A DNA stretch of 29,609 nucleotides from a virus. The notes below the pieces were generated by a model. The model was not told where the DNA came from, ran no database searches, and was given only the letters and a program-made list of their open reading frames with translations. The stretch covers positions 1 through 29,609 of IMG/VR virus record IMGVR_UViG_3300042429_000232. One strand, given 5' to 3'. Below, one piece after another: positions 2 through 17,562 of this stretch. Made by a program: the position numbers and the translations under genes. The stretch's first letter is position 1. Each line of letters starts with the position of its first letter.

Positions 2-292
2 TCGCTCGAAGGCGTGGATATCAAGCTGTTCTCAAACAACGCGAGCAACAACAACGATGTCATCAAATTGATGAACGGTGAACTTCCATGCGGCCCTTAC
101 ACACGCCCACGGAGCGTCGCTGGTTTGTTCTATATCAGCCAAGGTGTTCAGTACAGCTGTCGTGTGAGTTCACCCGCTGCGAGGGAACAGTTCGTGGGGC
201 AAATTACAGCCGGGTGGGTGGCTGAACCGGACCTTGAACACGCCCGTGCAATCCTGACCATTGTGGCTGATATGTTGGTCAAGGGAAAGTAA
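2..292 (+). CDS. Unknown small phage protein, 5' end cut by window
   Basis: The frame is open to the left edge of the window, so the true start may lie upstream; a GTG at 14 would give 92 residues. The protein is soluble-looking, with an Asn-rich start and no membrane segment, signal peptide or recognised domain. Its stop codon overlaps the ATG of the Rz-like gene by one base (TAATG), which places it in the same rightward transcript just ahead of the spanins. Holins often sit here, but the lack of a hydrophobic stretch argues against it being one. I do not recognise the family. Confidence 0.6.
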   Translation, partial: SLEGVDIKLFSNNASNNNDVIKLMNGELPCGPYTRPRSVAGLFYISQGVQYSCRVSSPAAREQFVGQITAGWVAEPDLEHARAILTIVADMLVKGK

Positions 293-705
293 TGCTTCTG
301 TACGCCAAGATAGCCGCTGCCGTGATTGCATTGGGCATTGCTTATTGGCAAGGCTATTCGACGATGAAAGACAAGCACCTGCTTTTTGTTGCAGAGGTTA
401 AGGCTGTGGGCGAGGCACAAGAGGCTGCTAATCGTAGTGCCGTTGAGATTGCGGAAGTCATCACAGAATCAGTCAAGGAAAATTATGAGAATCAAATTGC
501 TAGTCTGCGTACTAAGTACAATTCTGTTGGGAGGGTGTGCGACATCAATCCCAACAGCGGTAAAGTGTCCGCCGTTCCCAAACCCACCAGCGGAACTTAT
601 GACCCCACCACCGACTCAAAACTTATTGTCAACTGCGCCGAAACAACTGCACAGCTTGAAGCGCTCCAAAAATGGGTAAAGAAACAAAGTGAGGTAAAAA
701 GATGA
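292..705 (+). CDS. Rz-like inner-membrane spanin subunit (i-spanin)
   Basis: Encodes 137 residues. Residues about 4-20 form one N-terminal membrane anchor, followed by a long charged helical stretch (about 25-75) expected to cross the periplasm, and a C-terminal segment NCAETTAQLEALQKWV typical of Rz-like proteins. The i-spanin works with the outer-membrane lipoprotein spanin to fuse inner and outer membranes in the last step of lysis of Gram-negative cells. The decisive evidence is the nested lipoprotein gene in the +1 frame (485-679), the classic Rz/Rz1 arrangement. The start overlaps the previous stop by one base, and the end overlaps the HNH gene start (ATGA). Confidence 0.85.
   Translation: MLLYAKIAAAVIALGIAYWQGYSTMKDKHLLFVAEVKAVGEAQEAANRSAVEIAEVITESVKENYENQIASLRTKYNSVGRVCDINPNSGKVSAVPKPTSGTYDPTTDSKLIVNCAETTAQLEALQKWVKKQSEVKR
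485..679 (+). CDS. Rz1-like outer-membrane lipoprotein spanin (o-spanin), nested inside Rz
   Basis: A 64-residue protein lies wholly within the Rz-like gene in another frame. The ATG at 485 follows an AAGGAA ribosome site. Residues 1-17 form a lipoprotein signal peptide ending in the lipobox L15-G16-G17-C18, so the mature 47-residue protein would start at a lipidated Cys. The mature part is Pro-rich (PPFPNPP, TPPPT), as is usual for Rz1. A longer open frame reaches 386, but that extension is the basic out-of-frame reading of Rz and would bury the signal peptide, so 485 is preferred. It pairs with the Rz-like i-spanin for outer-membrane disruption. Confidence 0.88.
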   Translation: MRIKLLVCVLSTILLGGCATSIPTAVKCPPFPNPPAELMTPPPTQNLLSTAPKQLHSLKRSKNG

Positions 706-1163
706 TTACGCAACAAGAATTGTTGGATCGTTTTGAATACCGCAACGGTGAGTTAATCCGTAAAATAAACAATAAACCTATGAAAGGCATGAGTAATTCT
801 GGTTATCTGCGCGCCAACATTAACGGAACGATTTATTTAGTTCATCGTCTTATTTTTATGATGCATTACGGTTATTTGCCAAAGTACATTGATCATATTG
901 ATGGTAATACTGTTAACAACAATATTGTAAATTTAAGAGATGCATCGCTTTCAGAAAATGCGTGGAATCGACGAATTAATAAAAATTCCGTTACTAAAGT
1001 AAAAGGGGTTAGATTGCACAATTGCGGCAAATACCAAGTTAGATTACAAGTTAACAAAAAAAGTATGAATTTTGGTTTATATAACGATTTAGAACTTGCA
1101 GAATTAGTTGCTACCGAAGCTAGAAATAAATATCACAAGGAATTTGCAAATCATGGCTATTAA
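702..1163 (+). CDS. HNH homing endonuclease with C-terminal AP2-like DNA-binding domain
   Basis: Encodes 153 residues. The HNH core spans about 47-90: V47-H48-R49, then D64-H65-I66-D67-G68-N69, and a terminal N-rich part (N78, ENAWNR at 85-90). Residues about 100-146 resemble an AP2-type DNA-binding domain (KGVRL..., Y-Q-V-R-L, FGLYNDLELAELVATEA). Such genes are selfish homing elements that cut homologous phage DNA lacking the insert. The gene is clearly more AT-rich than its neighbours and sits in the lysis cassette, overlapping the Rz stop by 4 bases and the endolysin start by 11, so it was inserted without breaking either. No intron or intein is visible, so it is a free-standing endonuclease. 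Confidence 0.85.
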   Translation: MITQQELLDRFEYRNGELIRKINNKPMKGMSNSGYLRANINGTIYLVHRLIFMMHYGYLPKYIDHIDGNTVNNNIVNLRDASLSENAWNRRINKNSVTKVKGVRLHNCGKYQVRLQVNKKSMNFGLYNDLELAELVATEARNKYHKEFANHGY

Positions 1164-1692
1164 TAATTGGAAGCAGGCGTTTGAGCAGATGCTGGCAAGT
1201 GAAGGCGGGTTTACCGATGACACCCGTGATCCAGGCAATGCCCTGCCTGATGGTCGCGCAGGCTCAACCATGCTTGGCGTCACCCAGTACAACTGGGAGC
1301 AACACATTGGACACCAAGTCACGCACGATCAGATGCGTAAACTGACTCCTGCTGATGTCGAGCCACTGTACAAAAAGAAGTACTGGGACGCTGTTCGCGC
1401 TGACGAACTGCCAAGCGGGATTGATTATATGATTTTTGACATGGGTGTTAATTCAGGTCCAGGCCGCGCCATTAAGTTGTTGCAGTCTGCCGTAGGCGTT
1501 CCTGCTGATGGTGGGCTTGGCCCGATCTCAATGGCGGCTGTCTTGGCTGCTGACCCTGTTGAACTGATTGAAAAGTTCAGCGCAGAAAAAGAAGCCTTTT
1601 ACCGCAGCCTCAAAACATTTGAGACATACGGCAAAGGCTGGCTAAATCGTGTTGCTGCGGTCAAAGTTAAAGCCAATTCAATGTTAGCGTAA
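1153..1692 (+). CDS. Endolysin, GH108-type N-acetylmuramidase with C-terminal peptidoglycan-binding domain
   Basis: Encodes 179 residues, the usual size for the family. The N-terminal muramidase domain (about 5-95) has the E17-G18-G19 motif with E17 as expected catalytic acid, followed by D-P-G and a G-V-T-Q segment. Residues about 108-170 match a PG_binding_3-type domain (LLQSAVGVPADGGLGP). It cleaves the glycan backbone of peptidoglycan. There is no signal peptide or anchor, so release should depend on a holin not seen here. The ATG at 1153 follows AAGGAA with good spacing; a TTG at 1108 would add 15 residues inside the HNH gene and lacks family support. The stop region overlaps the convergent gene 1684-1869 by 9 bases. 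Confidence 0.9.
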   Translation: MAINNWKQAFEQMLASEGGFTDDTRDPGNALPDGRAGSTMLGVTQYNWEQHIGHQVTHDQMRKLTPADVEPLYKKKYWDAVRADELPSGIDYMIFDMGVNSGPGRAIKLLQSAVGVPADGGLGPISMAAVLAADPVELIEKFSAEKEAFYRSLKTFETYGKGWLNRVAAVKVKANSMLA

Positions 1693-7184: not shown

Positions 7185-7952
7185 ATGAGAACACTTGTAT
7201 GGTTTTCCTGTGGCGCAGCGAGCGCTGTGGCCGCCAAGATGGCTGTCGATAAATATCCAGACTGCGAAGTGTTGTACTGCGATACGCTTGCATACGAACA
7301 CCCAGACAATATGCGATTCCTAAATGATGTCGCTAAATGGATCGGCAAAGAAATTAAATTACTGAAGTCTGCCAAGTATACCGACATCTTTGATGTGTTT
7401 GACAAGACTGGTTGGTTGATCGGTGTGGGCGGCGCGCGCTGCACAACTGAGTTAAAGAAGAACGTGCGCAAACAATACGAGCGCCCTGATGACTTGCATA
7501 TCTTTGGTCTGACTAAAGATGAGGCCAAGCGCATCGAACGCTTTGAAGACCAGAACTCAGACACTAAGGTTGAGTGGATTCTTGAGAACACTACTAAAAA
7601 AGATTGTTACCGTATTGTCCAAGAGGCAGGCATTGAATTGCCTGAGATGTATAAGCTTGGGTACAACAATAACAATTGCATTGGTTGCGTCAAAGGTCAG
7701 GCAGGCTACTGGAATAAAATCCGCGTAGACTTTCCCGACGCGTTTGATCGTATGGCCAAGCAAGAGCGTAAGATGGGTGTCGCGATCAACAAGTCGTATG
7801 CGGGTGACGGTAAGCGCAAACGCATCTTCTTGGATGAACTAAACCCCAACTATGGCCGCAACGTGCCGCTACCAGACATTGAGTGCGGCGCGATCTGCAT
7901 TGCCCCAGAAGAAAAGTTTGAAACGGTGTCGCGCTATGATTCTCTGGATTGA
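7185..7952 (+). CDS. PAPS reductase-like PP-loop (adenine nucleotide alpha-hydrolase) protein
   Basis: Encodes 255 residues. The N-terminus W-F-S8-C-G-A-A-S13-A-V is a PP-loop nucleotide-binding motif in a variant form (SGGxxS is usual). C86 (A-R-C-T-T-E-L-K) and C165-x2-C168 (N-C-I-G-C-V-K-G) plus late cysteines in E-C-G-A-I-C may bind a metal or Fe-S cluster. Relatives activate substrates by adenylation or reduce PAPS; many phages carry such a gene and its substrate is unknown. I see no other sulfur-assimilation or phosphorothioation genes in the window. Only weak GGGA precedes the ATG. Its 3' end overlaps the polymerase start by 17 bases. Confidence 0.8.
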   Translation: MRTLVWFSCGAASAVAAKMAVDKYPDCEVLYCDTLAYEHPDNMRFLNDVAKWIGKEIKLLKSAKYTDIFDVFDKTGWLIGVGGARCTTELKKNVRKQYERPDDLHIFGLTKDEAKRIERFEDQNSDTKVEWILENTTKKDCYRIVQEAGIELPEMYKLGYNNNNCIGCVKGQAGYWNKIRVDFPDAFDRMAKQERKMGVAINKSYAGDGKRKRIFLDELNPNYGRNVPLPDIECGAICIAPEEKFETVSRYDSLD

Positions 7953-9918: not shown

Positions 9919-12234
9919 TTGTCGAGTGTACAACAAAATTTTATTGAATATCTATCTGGCCTTGCTATGCAGGGTGAAACATCGTTAATTGTTCGCCAAA
10001 AACCACAACTAAAGAACGGCGAGATGCAATTCCACGCCAACGGCGCGATCAAAGCGGTATGGCCTGCTTACTTGCCTACCCATAAAGTTAAGCCCGACTG
10101 GGCGATTTATGGCAATACGGCATCCTTTATTATTGATCGCTTTACCGATGGGCATCCAAGCGCATCCGTTAACAACGCCGAGTATGTGATGGTGATGGTG
10201 TTGGATGATGTAGGCGATCCAGACAAAGCCCCCAACATTCCGCCGTTGCAACCGACTTGGAAGATGGAGACGTCTAAAGGGTCGTTTCAATGGGGCTACA
10301 CCTTCTCAGATCAGCCCACAACAGGCGAATTTACAGCGGCCATCAAAGCCATTGCAGCGGCGGGTTACACCGACCCAGGCGCGACCAATGCGGTGCGTAA
10401 TTTCCGCCTGCCTGGTTCGATCAACTTAAAACCTGGGCGCGACAATTTTGCGTCTGCCCTGACTGAGTTTGACCCCAAGATCGAGTACACGCTAGAGGAA
10501 ATTTGTACGGCGTTTAACGTCACGCCAGAGGCCGCCGACACGTCTAGCATCCGCGCTGTTCGATTGATGGATGATGGTAACGATGACGTGGTGCGTTGGC
10601 TGTCGGTCAATAGTCTGATCATATCCAAGCCGAACTCCCAAGGTTGGATGGGGGTCGTTTGCCCTAATTTTGAACAGCACACGGACGGCAACCCTGAGGG
10701 GCGTTATCTACCCTTGAGCCGCGCATACTGCTGTCTGCACTCGCATTGTATTGACTTCGATAGCACGTCATTTTTAGCGTGGGTTGAGGAACAGGGCGGC
10801 CCGAAACACTCGCCTGGACTGCGGGAGGAATTGTTAGCGTCCAGTATGAATAGCGCGCTGTCCAAGCTTACACCCACCGAGGCGTTTCCTGATAGGGGTG
10901 CTGAGATCATCGCTGAGGTTGAGCGAAAAGAGGTCGGACGGGTTGAGAAGGCCGGATGGTTTACGCGCTTTGCGTACCTCCAAGCCGATGACGCTTACTT
11001 CGATTTACACGAGCGTACCCAAATATCGCGCCAATCATTTAACGCGCTGTTCCGTCACATAGACTGCAAGAGCGCGCACAACATTAAACGCCGCGTTGAG
11101 GCGTCCGTCTCGTTTGATGAACTTAGACAGAAATACGGCGCGCCCGCCTTGACTGGCATCACGTTTGCAGCGGGCGATGATGTGCTAGTGTCGCGCGGCG
11201 GCTTAGTCTACGCTAACCAATGGCGTAACTTGCGCCCGCCCGTTGTGCCTGGGGACGTGACCCCATGGCTCAAGCATGGTGAGCGCTTAATCCCCAATGA
11301 TGCCGAACGCAATCATGTACTGGATGCGATGGCCTATAAGCTGCAAAACCCCAAGGGCAAGGTCAACCACGCGATCTTACACGGCGGGCGCAGTCGTTCA
11401 GGTAAGGATAGCCTCTGGGCGCCGTTTTTCTGGGGTATTAGGGGTGATAGTCAGGACAACGTCAAATTGATGGCCGCTGCCCAATTGCAACAACAATTTC
11501 ATTACCAATTAGAAACCGAAGTGTTGGTGCTAAACGAATTGAAAGAGCCTGACGCCAAAGAGCGCCGCGCCCTAGCCAATGCACTTAAGCCCATCATTGC
11601 CGCCCCGCCAGACATGATCTCAATCAACCGTAAGGGCTTAAAACCTTATGAGATGATTAACAGACTATTCGTAGTGGCGTTCAGTAACGACAAGCTATCC
11701 ATTACCCTAGACAGCGATGACGGGCGATGGTTTTGTATATGGTCTGACGCGCCTAGAATGACAGAGGAAGAAAGCGCGCGGCTTTGGGCTTGGTATAACG
11801 CGGGCGGCTTGTCTGCTGTCGCGGCTTGGCTGTATGCGCGAGACGTGAGCAAGTTTAACCCCAAAGCGATACCGTTTGAAACTGACTTTAAACGTGCCAT
11901 GATTGAGCAGGGTATGAGCGGCGCAGAATCTAGCATCTACCATGACTTGATTGAGCGTAAGGGCGAATTTAGCAGAGGCGTGATTTCTAGCCCCTTCCAG
12001 GCACTCTGCGCCCGTATGAGTAACACTGGCGTAAAAATACCCGTTCCCGCGCTTATACACGCGCTAGCAGAGGCTAAATGGGTTGATATGGGTTTGGTTA
12101 TGAGTCGTGACTACACGACCAAAAAACACCTATACGCCGCGCCTGAAATGGCGGCTAAATATCCCAAGTCTGAATTGCGGCGCATGGTTGAGGAAATGCC
12201 CGCAACCTCTCCACCGTTACAGATCGTTAAATAA
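9919..12234 (+). CDS. Primase-helicase (RepB/AEP-like primase plus DUF5906/D5-like helicase)
   Basis: Encodes 771 residues from a TTG start at 9919, supported by AAGGAG seven bases upstream. The N-terminal part resembles archaeo-eukaryotic-type primases: L95-D96-D97-V-G-D100 as metal site and N157-A-V-R-N-F-R-L-P-G-S around 157-167. A Cys/His-containing middle (V-C-P-N-F...Y-C-C-L-H-S-H-C) may be a zinc motif. The C-terminal half has a helicase P-loop G490-R-S-R-S-G495-K496-D497, with Asp in place of the usual Ser/Thr as in DUF5906-type phage helicases, then E-V-L-V-L-N-E as Walker B. It should prime and unwind DNA for the polymerase encoded just upstream. Confidence 0.83.
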   Translation: MSSVQQNFIEYLSGLAMQGETSLIVRQKPQLKNGEMQFHANGAIKAVWPAYLPTHKVKPDWAIYGNTASFIIDRFTDGHPSASVNNAEYVMVMVLDDVGDPDKAPNIPPLQPTWKMETSKGSFQWGYTFSDQPTTGEFTAAIKAIAAAGYTDPGATNAVRNFRLPGSINLKPGRDNFASALTEFDPKIEYTLEEICTAFNVTPEAADTSSIRAVRLMDDGNDDVVRWLSVNSLIISKPNSQGWMGVVCPNFEQHTDGNPEGRYLPLSRAYCCLHSHCIDFDSTSFLAWVEEQGGPKHSPGLREELLASSMNSALSKLTPTEAFPDRGAEIIAEVERKEVGRVEKAGWFTRFAYLQADDAYFDLHERTQISRQSFNALFRHIDCKSAHNIKRRVEASVSFDELRQKYGAPALTGITFAAGDDVLVSRGGLVYANQWRNLRPPVVPGDVTPWLKHGERLIPNDAERNHVLDAMAYKLQNPKGKVNHAILHGGRSRSGKDSLWAPFFWGIRGDSQDNVKLMAAAQLQQQFHYQLETEVLVLNELKEPDAKERRALANALKPIIAAPPDMISINRKGLKPYEMINRLFVVAFSNDKLSITLDSDDGRWFCIWSDAPRMTEEESARLWAWYNAGGLSAVAAWLYARDVSKFNPKAIPFETDFKRAMIEQGMSGAESSIYHDLIERKGEFSRGVISSPFQALCARMSNTGVKIPVPALIHALAEAKWVDMGLVMSRDYTTKKHLYAAPEMAAKYPKSELRRMVEEMPATSPPLQIVK

Positions 12235-12238
12235 ATTA

Positions 12239-12265
12239 AAGCCCCTGCGAAGGGGCTTATTTTTT
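12239..12265. terminator. Bidirectional intrinsic terminator between convergent operons
   Basis: AAGCCCCT (12239-12246) pairs with AGGGGCTT (12251-12258) around a GCGA tetraloop, followed on the plus strand by A and six T. On the minus strand the same stem is followed by an AT-rich TTAATTTATT. It sits at the meeting point of the rightward replication operon and the leftward small-gene operon. Confidence 0.85.
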
Positions 12266-12323
12266 AGATGTCGAATATTATTATTATGAGCACCACAACC
12301 GCGCCAGTTATCAAGGGAAGCAT
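12264..12323 (-). CDS. 19-residue hydrophobic micropeptide, predicted membrane protein
   Basis: The open frame encodes MLPLITGAVVVLIIIIFDI. It starts at an ATG seven bases after a perfect AAGGAGG that lies inside the 3' end of the upstream gene, with a 13-base overlap. Nearly the whole peptide could span a membrane once, and it carries no positive charge other than its N-terminus. Its stop coincides with the T-run of the convergent terminator, so it is the last gene of the leftward operon. The function is unknown; short phage membrane peptides can act in exclusion, lysis control or inhibition of host membrane proteins. The chance of a random ORF is reduced by the ideal ribosome site and operon-end position. 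Confidence 0.55.
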   Translation of the reverse strand: MLPLITGAVVVLIIIIFDI

Positions 12324-12523
12324 CTAAGCGCCTCCTTAAATATGGGGTGCACGTTATCCAGATACGCGCCAATGTCACGCGGAAAGACGTGCTTAAAGGT
12401 TGCGCTTTCATCCATTGACTTGACGTAGACGTAATTATTGAAATCGTGCACGATATATGGCGTGTTTTTAATATGCACAATATCGCCGCGCTCAACTGGT
12501 TTGCCATTCGTATATTTAAGCAT
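12311..12523 (-). CDS. Unknown small protein
   Basis: Encodes 70 residues from ATG 12523, nine bases after GGAG and overlapping the previous stop by 8 bases; a TTG at 12538 is a weaker alternative. The sequence starts with a compact beta-type segment (V-E-R-G-D-I-V-H-I-K-N-T-P-Y-I-V-H-D) reminiscent of small SH3-like or KOW-like folds, followed by a helical end. I do not recognise the family. The 3' end holds the ribosome site of the micropeptide gene. Confidence 0.65.
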   Translation of the reverse strand: MLKYTNGKPVERGDIVHIKNTPYIVHDFNNYVYVKSMDESATFKHVFPRDIGAYLDNVHPIFKEALRCFP

Positions 12524-12713
12524 TTTCGACCGCTCCAAAAGCTACAAATTCGGTTTCATTGATGTCAATCACTAGGTTAGGCGCGTCAATTAGCCGCCAT
12601 TCCGCATTTTCCGTATCGCAAGCGGCGATTTCTTGCGCCTCCTCTGCATCGGGCGCGACAATGTCAATCCAGACCTTTTGGATATATTCGCCATAGACTC
12701 TGTAAGTGTTCAT
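12516..12713 (-). CDS. Unknown small acidic protein, DpnD/PcfM-like
   Basis: Encodes 65 residues. The first part (M-N-T-Y-R-V-Y-G-E...W-I-D-I-V-A-P-D-A-E-E-A-Q-E-I-A) follows the pattern of DpnD/PcfM-type small proteins: a strand, another strand, then an 'A-x-x-x-E-E-A' helix. The protein is acidic overall. The ATG at 12713 overlaps the previous stop as ATGA. No activity is known for this family, so the similarity gives no function. Confidence 0.65.
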   Translation of the reverse strand: MNTYRVYGEYIQKVWIDIVAPDAEEAQEIAACDTENAEWRLIDAPNLVIDINETEFVAFGAVENA

Positions 12714-12865
12714 TCTGCCACCTCATGGAAACAGTAATCGGCTACGCCGCGCTCATACCCCATTGTGTATAAAACGCGTAGTTTTGCCTCGTCATATACA
12801 TTATTTTCTACGCCATTGTGACGGCCGTCATAATAGCCAATTGCGTACGCGTCATAAGTGTTCAT
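12710..12865 (-). CDS. Small phage protein with GYYDGR...GYERGVADYC pattern
   Basis: Encodes 51 residues. Two related segments, A-I-G-Y-Y-D-G-R-H-N-G and T-M-G-Y-E-R-G-V-A-D-Y-C, form a pattern I recognise from short hypothetical phage proteins. The ATG at 12865 overlaps the upstream stop (ATGA) and its own stop overlaps the next ATG (ATGA), so it is fully coupled to both neighbours. That coupling and the motif make it a real gene despite its size. Function unknown. Confidence 0.7.
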   Translation of the reverse strand: MNTYDAYAIGYYDGRHNGVENNVYDEAKLRVLYTMGYERGVADYCFHEVAE

Positions 12866-13029
12866 TTATTAGCCTCTTTAAGTTTTTGCGCCTCTGCCTG
12901 GGTTAACCCGTAGTAGTCGGGCGTGACATCAAAACGCCCACATTCGGACGTGTAAGCGTCCGTGATTTCCATATCGTTGATTACATAAGCATAGACTGGC
13001 GCGCCAGTTGCATCGGTTGTCAATATCAT
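12862..13029 (-). CDS. Unknown small protein
   Basis: Encodes 55 residues from ATG 13029, which overlaps the previous stop (ATGA) and has GGAG eight bases upstream; the ATG at 13044 is inside the upstream gene and less likely. The sequence has a beta-like first half (A-P-V-Y-A-Y-V-I-N-D-M-E-I) and ends with Y-G-L-T-Q-A-E-A-Q-K-L-K-E-A. No family recognised. Confidence 0.6.
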   Translation of the reverse strand: MILTTDATGAPVYAYVINDMEITDAYTSECGRFDVTPDYYGLTQAEAQKLKEANK

Positions 13030-13184
13030 TTTTTGATACTCCATGCGTAGACATAAGGTAATTCTTGTTTAAGTGTGATTTCGCCGCCATTCGCACCTTG
13101 TCCTAACTCATCAATAATATCTTGTAACGCTTCGCCCAAAGCGTCAGGTTCGTAAAACTTAATTTCTATCGTTAATGTTTTCAT
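13026..13184 (-). CDS. Unknown small protein
   Basis: Encodes 52 residues, starting M-K-T-L-T-I-E-I-K-F-Y-E-P-D-A and continuing with an acidic helix (L-G-E-A-L-Q-D-I-I-D-E-L) and a C-terminal strand (L-P-Y-V-Y-A-W-S-I-K-K). GAGGTGA lies just before the ATG at 13184, which overlaps the previous stop as ATGA. The stop in turn overlaps the next start as ATGA. A beta-alpha-beta layout is suggested. Function unknown. Confidence 0.65.
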   Translation of the reverse strand: MKTLTIEIKFYEPDALGEALQDIIDELGQGANGGEITLKQELPYVYAWSIKK

Positions 13185-13404: not shown

Positions 13405-13764
13405 TTAGAATTGAACGTAGACAATCGTACCGGATGAGGTCATACCTGCGACTTGTGTTTCATCCCATAAATACTCATGCACTAATTGCGACACTTCGGC
13501 GTCGGTGAAACTGTCTACGCCGTGTTCTTCAAACTGAGGTATTTCGGTGTCTAAGCTATACGCCTTGATAATGTCGCGCGGTGTAGATTCTGCCCATTCG
13601 CAACAGATACCGATCATGTCGAATTCGATCTGTTCACCGGTGCTGTCTTCGTATTCTTCGATATAGTCAAAAATGAGCGTTTGCGCCTCATAAGAGAATT
13701 GATCTTTGCGGTCTGAGTTGCGGAAAGCGTTCGTAAAGTCTGAGAGTCTGAGTGTCTGTATCAT
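13405..13764 (-). CDS. Unknown acidic phage protein
   Basis: Encodes 119 residues and is the largest gene of this cluster. The segment F-S-Y-E-A-Q-T-L-I-F-D-Y-I-E-E-Y-E followed by I-E-F-D-M-I-G-I-C-C-E-W matches a pattern seen in many small phage hypothetical proteins (DUF7222-like, from memory). It is strongly acidic, as DNA-mimic and anti-restriction proteins often are, but so are many small proteins; no function is claimed. AGGAAAT precedes the ATG at 13764. Confidence 0.7.
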   Translation of the reverse strand: MIQTLRLSDFTNAFRNSDRKDQFSYEAQTLIFDYIEEYEDSTGEQIEFDMIGICCEWAESTPRDIIKAYSLDTEIPQFEEHGVDSFTDAEVSQLVHEYLWDETQVAGMTSSGTIVYVQF

Positions 13765-13803: not shown

Positions 13804-13869
13804 CTATAAAAAGCAAGCGGCAACGATAGCCGCGCCAAAAAGAATGACTGCTGTGATGTCGTGAATCAT
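13804..13869 (-). CDS. 21-residue hydrophobic micropeptide, predicted membrane protein
   Basis: The ATG at 13869 overlaps the upstream stop as ATGA, and the 22-codon frame encodes a short polar N-terminus (M-I-H-D-I-T) followed by a hydrophobic stretch A-V-I-L-F-G-A-A-I-V-A-A-C-F-L long enough for one membrane span. GAGG is visible about 11 bases upstream, slightly far, so translational coupling probably matters. It is the second hydrophobic micropeptide of this leftward operon. Function unknown; it may be a chance frame, though coupling and uniform hydrophobicity argue otherwise. Confidence 0.45.
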   Translation of the reverse strand: MIHDITAVILFGAAIVAACFL

Positions 13870-14129
13870 AATTGAAGTGCCTCAATAGCAGAGTGAAGGG
13901 AATCGAAAGACATATCGCCGTTTGTCACGCCGTCATCAGTTACGGCGAATTTGTAGCCGTCTTCACTCATAATGGAAATAACAGTATGCGCGGCGAGGAA
14001 ATCATCAAGGCTATCGAACAACAAGTCGCTGTTGATATCGCCGTACAAAGCGCCGCCTTCAGCGTCAGAATAGATTTTGCCGTCATCGTGCAAGTAGTAA
14101 GACGTCTCGATTGTGTGTAGTGTTAGCAT
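13866..14129 (-). CDS. Unknown acidic small protein, first gene of leftward cluster
   Basis: Encodes 87 residues and is strongly acidic (many Asp/Glu, few basic residues). Two similar segments, H-D-D-G-K-I-Y-S-D and M-S-E-D-G-Y-K-F-A-V-T-D-D-G, suggest a small repeated beta fold. The ATG at 14129 follows AGGGG and a leader of about 60 bases from the promoter at 14196-14223, so it should be the first and best-expressed gene of the operon. The family is not recognised. Confidence 0.65.
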   Translation of the reverse strand: MLTLHTIETSYYLHDDGKIYSDAEGGALYGDINSDLLFDSLDDFLAAHTVISIMSEDGYKFAVTDDGVTNGDMSFDSLHSAIEALQL

Positions 14130-17194: not shown

Positions 17195-17320
17195 ATGCCG
17201 TTAAAAAAATCACCTTCAAAAGAAGCCTTCCGGCAGAACGTCAAAGCTGAAGTTAAAGCTGGGAAGCCCGTCAAACAGGCTGTCGCAATTGCGTATGCCG
17301 TTAAACGAAAAGCAAAATGA
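17195..17320 (+). CDS. Small basic phage protein
   Basis: Encodes 41 residues with the pattern S-K-E-A-F-R-Q-N-V-K-A-E-V-K-A-G-K-P-V-K followed by Q-A-V-A-I-A-Y-A-V-K-R, which recurs in many phages in this position near terminase or portal. One base separates it from the preceding stop, and its own stop overlaps the co-chaperonin start (ATGA). A helix-turn-helix-like pair of helices is possible. Function unknown. Confidence 0.75.
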   Translation: MPLKKSPSKEAFRQNVKAEVKAGKPVKQAVAIAYAVKRKAK

Positions 17321-17562
17321 TCCGACCAATCAACGATAATATTGTAGTCAAACCTGATCCGTTCGTTCAGAGCGGGCTAATTATCATGCCTGAAGAAGAG
17401 ATGCGCACCGGAGTGGTGGTTGCGGTCGGTCCAGGCAAGAAAGGCTCCAACCGCCCGCTCATGGTGTCGGTCGGCGATCACATCATGTACAGCGGCACAA
17501 TCGACCAAGAGTTTGATGGGCTGTTGGTAATGAAAGACAAAGACGTAATAGGAACGGTATGA
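17317..17562 (+). CDS. GroES-like co-chaperonin
   Basis: Encodes 81 residues with a clear Cpn10 pattern: R3-P-I-N-D-N-I-V-V-K12, mobile-loop region around S19-G20-L21-I22-I23-M-P, T-G-V-V-V-A-V-G-P-G, V-G-D-H-I-M-Y-S, and a C-terminal L-L-V-M-K-D-K-D-V-I-G. Compared with bacterial GroES (about 97 residues) the roof/loop parts look shortened. Viral co-chaperonins replace GroES so that host GroEL can fold the coat protein (phage T4 gp31 is the known case). It lies ATGA-coupled before the portal gene, in the head module, which suits that role. Confidence 0.82.
   Translation: MIRPINDNIVVKPDPFVQSGLIIMPEEEMRTGVVVAVGPGKKGSNRPLMVSVGDHIMYSGTIDQEFDGLLVMKDKDVIGTV

What the first reader, a model, noticed from the sequence alone, without database searches (positions are those of the whole stretch)
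12264..12323. Nineteen-residue membrane micropeptide with an ideal ribosome site
A perfect AAGGAGG seven bases before ATG drives a frame encoding a nearly pure hydrophobic segment at the very end of the leftward operon. Such peptides escape routine annotation. It may target a host membrane protein, act in superinfection exclusion or regulate lysis.
Basis: partly seen in the sequence, partly recalled or inferred. Interest (0 to 1): 0.65.

Follow-up and report, generated by a model that had tools for sequence, protein, structure and literature searches.

The report
Conserved phage membrane micropeptide, 19 residues
A 19-residue water-repelling peptide encoded at the end of a phage gene cluster is a genuine, strongly conserved gene family that annotation misses; it probably sits in the host's inner membrane during infection, and the same operon carries a second, unrelated membrane micropeptide.

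Summary
Window 12264-12323 (-) encodes MLPLITGAVVVLIIIIFDI*, with AAGGAGG seven bases before ATG, as the last gene of the leftward small-ORF operon. It is a real gene: 58 distinct DNA versions encode 41 distinct 19-20-residue proteins in uncultured phage contigs, with pN/pS about 0.25 and invariant L5, L13 and C-terminal F-D (20-residue numbering). In a search not conditioned on the peptide, 52 of 57 usable loci carrying the upstream gene carry it directly behind that gene; none is frameshifted or broken. Four of the other five have an unrelated 34-35-residue single-span peptide in the slot. It also occurs behind different upstream genes, so it is selected in its own right. The perfect Shine-Dalgarno is particular to this phage; many relatives rely on start/stop overlap. 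The window carries a second membrane micropeptide, 13804-13869 (-), MIHDITAVILFGAAIVAACFL*, also a conserved family. Neither matches Pfam, PHROGs, NCBIfam or PDB usefully. Function is inferred: most likely a single-span inner-membrane peptide acting through a specific helix contact on a host membrane protein. Lysis effector is unlikely, since a close relative has a full lysis cassette; an Ibs-like toxin remains possible.

The parts
12264..12323 (-). Peptide B: 19-residue micropeptide MLPLITGAVVVLIIIIFDI*, one predicted membrane span, C-terminal F-D-I
   Evidence: family conservation
12331..12337 (-). Shine-Dalgarno AAGGAGG, 7 bases before the ATG, inside the last codons of the upstream gene
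   Evidence: variable in relatives
12311..12538 (-). Upstream gene (up75, TTG start as listed, 75 aa); its stop lies 13 bases inside peptide B; weakly modelled small beta-barrel plus C-terminal helix
12239..12258 (.). Bidirectional intrinsic-terminator-like hairpin between the leftward operon and the convergent primase gene
   Evidence: 48 of 51 distinct family loci have a terminator within 150 bases of the B stop
13804..13869 (-). Peptide A: second micropeptide, MIHDITAVILFGAAIVAACFL* (21 aa), ATGA overlap with the upstream 87-aa ORF
13866..14129 (-). 87-aa ORF coupled to peptide A; first clear gene of the leftward small-ORF operon
12516..12713 (-). 65-aa ORF of the operon, conserved in near relatives only
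12862..13044 (-). 60-aa ORF of the operon, conserved in several relatives
   Evidence: PHROG 38721 E 0.0027
13405..13764 (-). 119-aa ORF of the operon, PHROG 9974, unknown function

Best explanation
Window 12264-12323 (-) is a protein-coding gene for a 19-residue single-span membrane peptide (peptide B), translated by coupling to the gene in front of it. SHOWN by sequence: the gene is real, under purifying selection, fixed in length at 19-20 residues, always ends F-D-[L/I/V], lies last in its operon before a terminator, and is kept when the upstream gene or the replication genes are exchanged. INFERRED from hydrophobicity: it inserts in the host inner membrane as one short helix, probably N-terminus inside and the acidic C-terminus at the outer face. 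INFERRED and least certain: it works by a specific helix contact, through the invariant residues, with one inner-membrane partner, most likely a host protein, to adjust host physiology or block a second phage, rather than by unspecific membrane damage.
For: Unconditioned test: 52 of 57 loci with the upstream gene have B (37 distinct DNA versions), no broken copies. 58 DNA versions, 41 proteins, pN/pS 0.25; L5, L13, F18 and D19 invariant while the other helix positions swap aliphatic residues; the unconditioned set also always ends F-D-[L/I/V], so this is not created by the search pattern. B sits behind unrelated upstream genes in L044/L048, behind peptide A in L069/L087/L099/L115/L122/L138, and with another primase. 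GRAVY 2.5-2.7, net charge -1. Full lysis genes lie elsewhere in a close relative. Four of five loci without B have another single-span peptide in the slot. Essentially absent from cellular genomes: the only hit among 84,980 has no start codon and a stop just upstream.
Against: No expression, membrane insertion or partner is shown. Timing is unknown: the operon has no promoter match above chance. Variability shows no significant helical face (p 0.26), so a specific packing surface is not demonstrated. The partner could be a phage protein, including peptide A, which co-occurs in 23 of 36 distinct loci with enough upstream DNA.
Confidence: 0.45

Rival explanations
1. It works like the 19-residue toxin IbsC: a hydrophobic peptide that depolarises the host inner membrane and arrests growth.
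For: Same length class and extreme hydrophobicity. IbsC is 19 residues, a membrane helix without positively charged C-terminal residues, and depolarises cells (PMC8309996).
Against: IbsC toxicity needs few residues, and frameshifted IbsC keeps toxicity (PMC7192591), whereas B is held to an invariant L, L, F-D pattern with pN/pS 0.25. No Pfam match to an Ibs family; no antisense RNA antitoxin was looked for beyond Rfam, which found nothing. A stand-alone toxin coupled to other genes needs timing control not seen here.
Confidence: 0.17
2. Peptides A and B together form one two-peptide membrane complex, each useless without the other.
For: Both are conserved single-span peptides in the same operon; in one phage type A lies directly before B with a 7-8-base gap. 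A is found in 23 of 36 distinct loci with enough DNA.
Against: 13 of 36 loci with B have no recognised A; L208 has A with a different peptide in the B slot. In the window they are 1.5 kb apart.
Confidence: 0.15
3. It regulates lysis timing, for example as an antiholin for the two-span holin candidate.
For: Small single-span peptides can inhibit holins (general knowledge); a close relative has a 64-aa two-span candidate holin.
Against: It lies in the leftward small-ORF operon, not in the lysis cassette, which itself looks complete in that relative (2-span protein, Rz, Rz1, endolysin).
Confidence: 0.1
4. It serves the upstream gene product only, as a membrane anchor or partner of the small beta-barrel protein.
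For: Start and stop overlap in most loci; 52 of 57 loci keep both.
Against: B occurs without that gene behind unrelated ones (L044/L048, L093/L132, the A-B loci); in L012/L054 the upstream frame has an internal stop while B is intact, though that could be a sequencing error.
Confidence: 0.1
5. Not translated: the conservation reflects an RNA or overlap effect.
For: It overlaps the upstream gene by 13 bases in this phage.
Against: Third-position excess, pN/pS 0.25, ATG and stop kept in all 58 versions, no other frame open in all; null 0 of 200; no Rfam match.
Confidence: 0.03

Closest known systems
IbsC and the Ibs type I toxins of E. coli
   Same: 19 residues, almost purely hydrophobic, one predicted membrane helix (PMC8309996)
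   Different: Phage-encoded inside an operon, coupled to the upstream gene, F-D-[L/I/V] end invariant, strong sequence constraint, no RNA antitoxin known
Bacterial small single-span membrane proteins such as YohP (27 aa)
   Same: A lone membrane span of under 30 residues with no enzymatic domain (PMC7549839, abstract)
   Different: No sequence relation found; phage gene, shorter, acidic C-terminus
Phage superinfection-exclusion membrane proteins (T4 Imm, P22 SieA; from general knowledge)
   Same: Small phage proteins of the inner membrane in non-structural operons
   Different: Those are several times longer; no homology and no exclusion test here
Phage holins and antiholins
   Same: Short hydrophobic spans in phage genomes
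   Different: Not in the lysis cassette, a single span of 19-20 residues, and a holin candidate exists elsewhere in a close relative

Membership tests
Ibs type I toxin | Short hydrophobic peptide, one membrane helix | tested here: met
   19-20 residues, GRAVY 2.5-2.7; the span itself is a prediction from hydrophobicity
Ibs type I toxin | Match to a curated family model | tested here: not met
   No Ibs match in Pfam or NCBIfam at E up to 10; such short queries lose sensitivity
Ibs type I toxin | Antisense RNA antitoxin encoded at the locus | tested here: inconclusive
   No Rfam family in the window; antisense promoters not testable reliably
Ibs type I toxin | Toxic by membrane depolarisation | not testable with these tools
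   Needs expression
Holin or antiholin | Encoded with endolysin and spanins | tested here: not met
   Lysis genes lie in another operon (window 292-1692; L146 1930-3650)
Holin or antiholin | Match to a lysis PHROG | tested here: not met
   PHROGs gives only phrog_6210, unknown function, E 0.14
Phage superinfection-exclusion protein | Excludes a second phage | not testable with these tools
   No host or isolate known
Phage small membrane protein (general kind) | Conserved coding micro-ORF with one predicted span | tested here: met

The most novel reading that the evidence does not exclude
The small-ORF operon of this phage group has two fixed membrane-micropeptide slots, one after the 87-aa gene (peptide A or an unrelated peptide) and one at the operon end (peptide B or an unrelated 34-35-residue peptide), and the peptides of the two slots act together as a two-part membrane device built from some of the shortest conserved phage proteins known.
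Probability: 0.15. Interest if true: 0.7.

Novelty: new variant of a known kind. Interest (0 to 1): 0.5.

Why it matters
Proteins this short are below usual annotation cut-offs, yet here one is as tightly kept as ordinary genes across a whole group of P22-like environmental phages, and a second one shares its operon. The invariant residues, the independence from neighbouring genes and the replacement of B by unrelated single-span peptides give a clear testable case for what phages gain from a lone membrane helix, and a search recipe (degenerate DNA pattern plus length, terminator and start/stop overlap) for finding more.

Tried and rejected
tblastn of a 20-residue version against INPHARED found nothing, but low-complexity filtering makes that uninformative; the 75-aa upstream protein also has no match there, which is informative. 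Annotated relatives OR003940, MW202483 and MW202898 were scanned for a homolog: none found. The one hit in 84,980 cellular genomes (L065) is chance: no start codon, stop just upstream. The 92.9-kb contig of L051 looked like a prophage in host DNA, but appears to be a chimera of this phage (about 38 kb, lysis genes repeated at its ends) and another phage, so it does not reveal the host. Helical-face analysis of the variable positions: not significant. Fold search with the upstream protein: small barrel with KOW, Tudor and PWWP look-alikes, best E 0.034, not significant. The peptides are too short for the structure predictor (minimum 30 residues). A weak Pfam match to PsbX (E 0.056, below cut-off) was dismissed as generic hydrophobic similarity.

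Full report
What was claimed. A 19-codon frame at 12264-12323 on the minus strand with a perfect AAGGAGG seven bases before its ATG, encoding a hydrophobic peptide at the end of the leftward operon. All of this is in the sequence: MLPLITGAVVVLIIIIFDI*. The ATG lies 13 bases inside the end of the 75-aa upstream frame 12311-12538, and a hairpin with T-rich tails on both sides (12239-12258) separates the operon from the convergent primase gene 9919-12234.

Is it more than chance? The window holds two strongly hydrophobic micro-frames of 15-25 codons against 0.19 expected in shuffles, and one with a strong Shine-Dalgarno against none in 100 shuffles. The stronger test is comparative. Relatives were first fetched with the upstream protein and the primase, without reference to the peptide; every one of the loci that holds the upstream gene encodes a 19-20-residue homolog right behind it. 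A degenerate DNA pattern then found 46 contigs in IMG/VR, all with an ATG at the right distance apart from one cut by its contig end. A looser pattern split cleanly into real homologs, each with ATG exactly 20 codons before the stop, and chance hits without a fitting ATG. In all there are 58 distinct DNA versions and 41 proteins. A single scan of 84,980 cellular genomes with the same pattern gave one chance hit.

Unbiased conservation test. An alignment of the upstream protein was used to fetch 62 loci. Four are only distantly similar and one is cut off. Of the 57 usable, 52 (37 distinct DNA versions) have the peptide directly behind the upstream gene, all ending F-D-[L/I/V]; none is frameshifted or interrupted. 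Of the other five, L183, L184, L185 and L208 have instead an unrelated 34-35-residue peptide with one hydrophobic stretch (MTTTPKNPGLFKLISRLLLFWLVHAFINKDKKHK and a relative), and L192 has a soluble frame.

Selection. Over the last 16 codons pS is 0.72 and pN 0.18, ratio 0.25; mean pairwise differences at codon positions 1, 2, 3 are 0.31, 0.09, 0.59; no other frame, sense or antisense, is open in all versions; the 30 bases behind the stop differ at 0.69 of positions. Permuting alignment columns gives 0.84 +/- 0.23, none of 200 as low as observed (first 35 versions). In 20-residue numbering L5, L13, F18 and D19 never vary, V11 and I15 hardly vary, other positions exchange aliphatic or small residues. 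The sequence is therefore held more tightly than 'any hydrophobic helix' requires, although no single helix face stands out (p 0.26).

Independence from neighbours. The upstream gene is usually the up75 family, with its stop overlapping the start by 1, 4 or 13 bases. But in L044 and L048 an unrelated 94/89-aa gene takes its place, in L093 and L132 another, and in L069, L087, L099, L115, L122 and L138 another micropeptide. Some of these phages carry a different primase and a terminase-small-subunit-like gene downstream. In L012/L054 the up75 frame has an internal stop while the peptide is intact (possibly a sequencing error). 48 of 51 distinct downstream flanks have an intrinsic terminator within 150 bases. 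The micropeptide is thus a gene in its own right, and its fixed place is the operon end. The strong SD of this window is not conserved; overlap coupling is.

A second micropeptide. The peptide directly upstream of B in the L069 type led to a family (peptide A, 21-24 residues, 38 proteins, pN/pS 0.23-0.40) that is also in the window: 13804-13869 (-), MIHDITAVILFGAAIVAACFL*, with its ATG overlapping the stop of the 87-aa frame. A is recognised in 23 of 36 distinct loci with enough upstream DNA. In L024, L037 and L054 an unrelated 31-residue membrane peptide sits at the same place (compare).

What the phage is. Portal, coat-like and terminase genes are P22-like; the nearest annotated records are metagenome-assembled phages, DSL-LC05 from Dishui Lake (large terminase 67%) and MW202483 from Manatee Spring (large terminase 76%, primase 50%). 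Neither has peptide B. No host is known.

Mechanism. Hydrophobicity (GRAVY 2.5-2.7, charge -1) makes insertion as one short helix very likely, not shown. Lysis is unlikely as its task: the close relative G001 (locus L146) has a two-span holin candidate, Rz and Rz1 candidates and an endolysin together in the other operon, and the window has the right part of that cassette at 292-1692. An Ibs-like depolarising toxin is the main rival; IbsC has the same length and character (PMC8309996), but its toxicity tolerates drastic sequence change, even frameshifts (PMC7192591), which contrasts with the invariant F-D end here. I therefore favour a specific contact with an inner-membrane partner, most likely of the host, for host reprogramming or superinfection exclusion; confidence in that last step is modest.

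Known families. No useful match in Pfam, NCBIfam, PHROGs or PDB sequences; short queries limit these searches. I count it as a new family of a known general kind, phage single-span small membrane proteins, unusual for its length, its invariant C-terminus and its two-slot operon.

Noticed in passing
window 13804-13869 (-): Second membrane micropeptide of the same operon, MIHDITAVILFGAAIVAACFL*, ATGA-coupled to the 87-aa frame, member of a conserved family of 21-24 residues (38 proteins, pN/pS 0.23-0.40).
   Followed up: yes
L183, L184, L185, L208, directly behind the up75 gene (match ends at 613, 3195, 3195, 3204): Peptide B replaced by an unrelated 34-35-residue single-span peptide with a basic C-terminus, followed by a terminator-like hairpin.
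   Followed up: partly
L024, L037, L054 about 1.9 kb upstream of peptide B: Peptide A replaced by an unrelated 31-residue membrane peptide MKRKLLDLFCYAFLIVMTLYLMDMFVTELAR.
   Followed up: partly
window 702-1163 (+): HNH-endonuclease-like frame between the Rz-like gene and the endolysin; absent in the close relative L146, where the endolysin follows directly.
   Followed up: no
window 386-679 (+) inside 292-705 (+): Rz1-like lipoprotein frame (MRIKLLVCVLSTILLGGCATS...) nested in the Rz-like gene.
   Followed up: no
window 17317-17562 (+): GroES-like co-chaperonin frame before the portal gene; the same position is annotated GroES in DSL-LC05.
   Followed up: no
window 7185-7952 (+): PAPS-reductase-domain gene (Pfam PF01507) between the single-strand-binding-like and polymerase genes.
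   Followed up: no
L051 / contig IMGVR_UViG_3300042472_000301 (92.9 kb): Public contig looks chimeric: a complete phage of this group (about 38 kb) joined to a different phage.
   Followed up: yes
L012 and L054, up75 homolog: Internal stop codon in the upstream gene (KSG*VYA) while peptide B is intact; sequencing error not excluded.
   Followed up: partly
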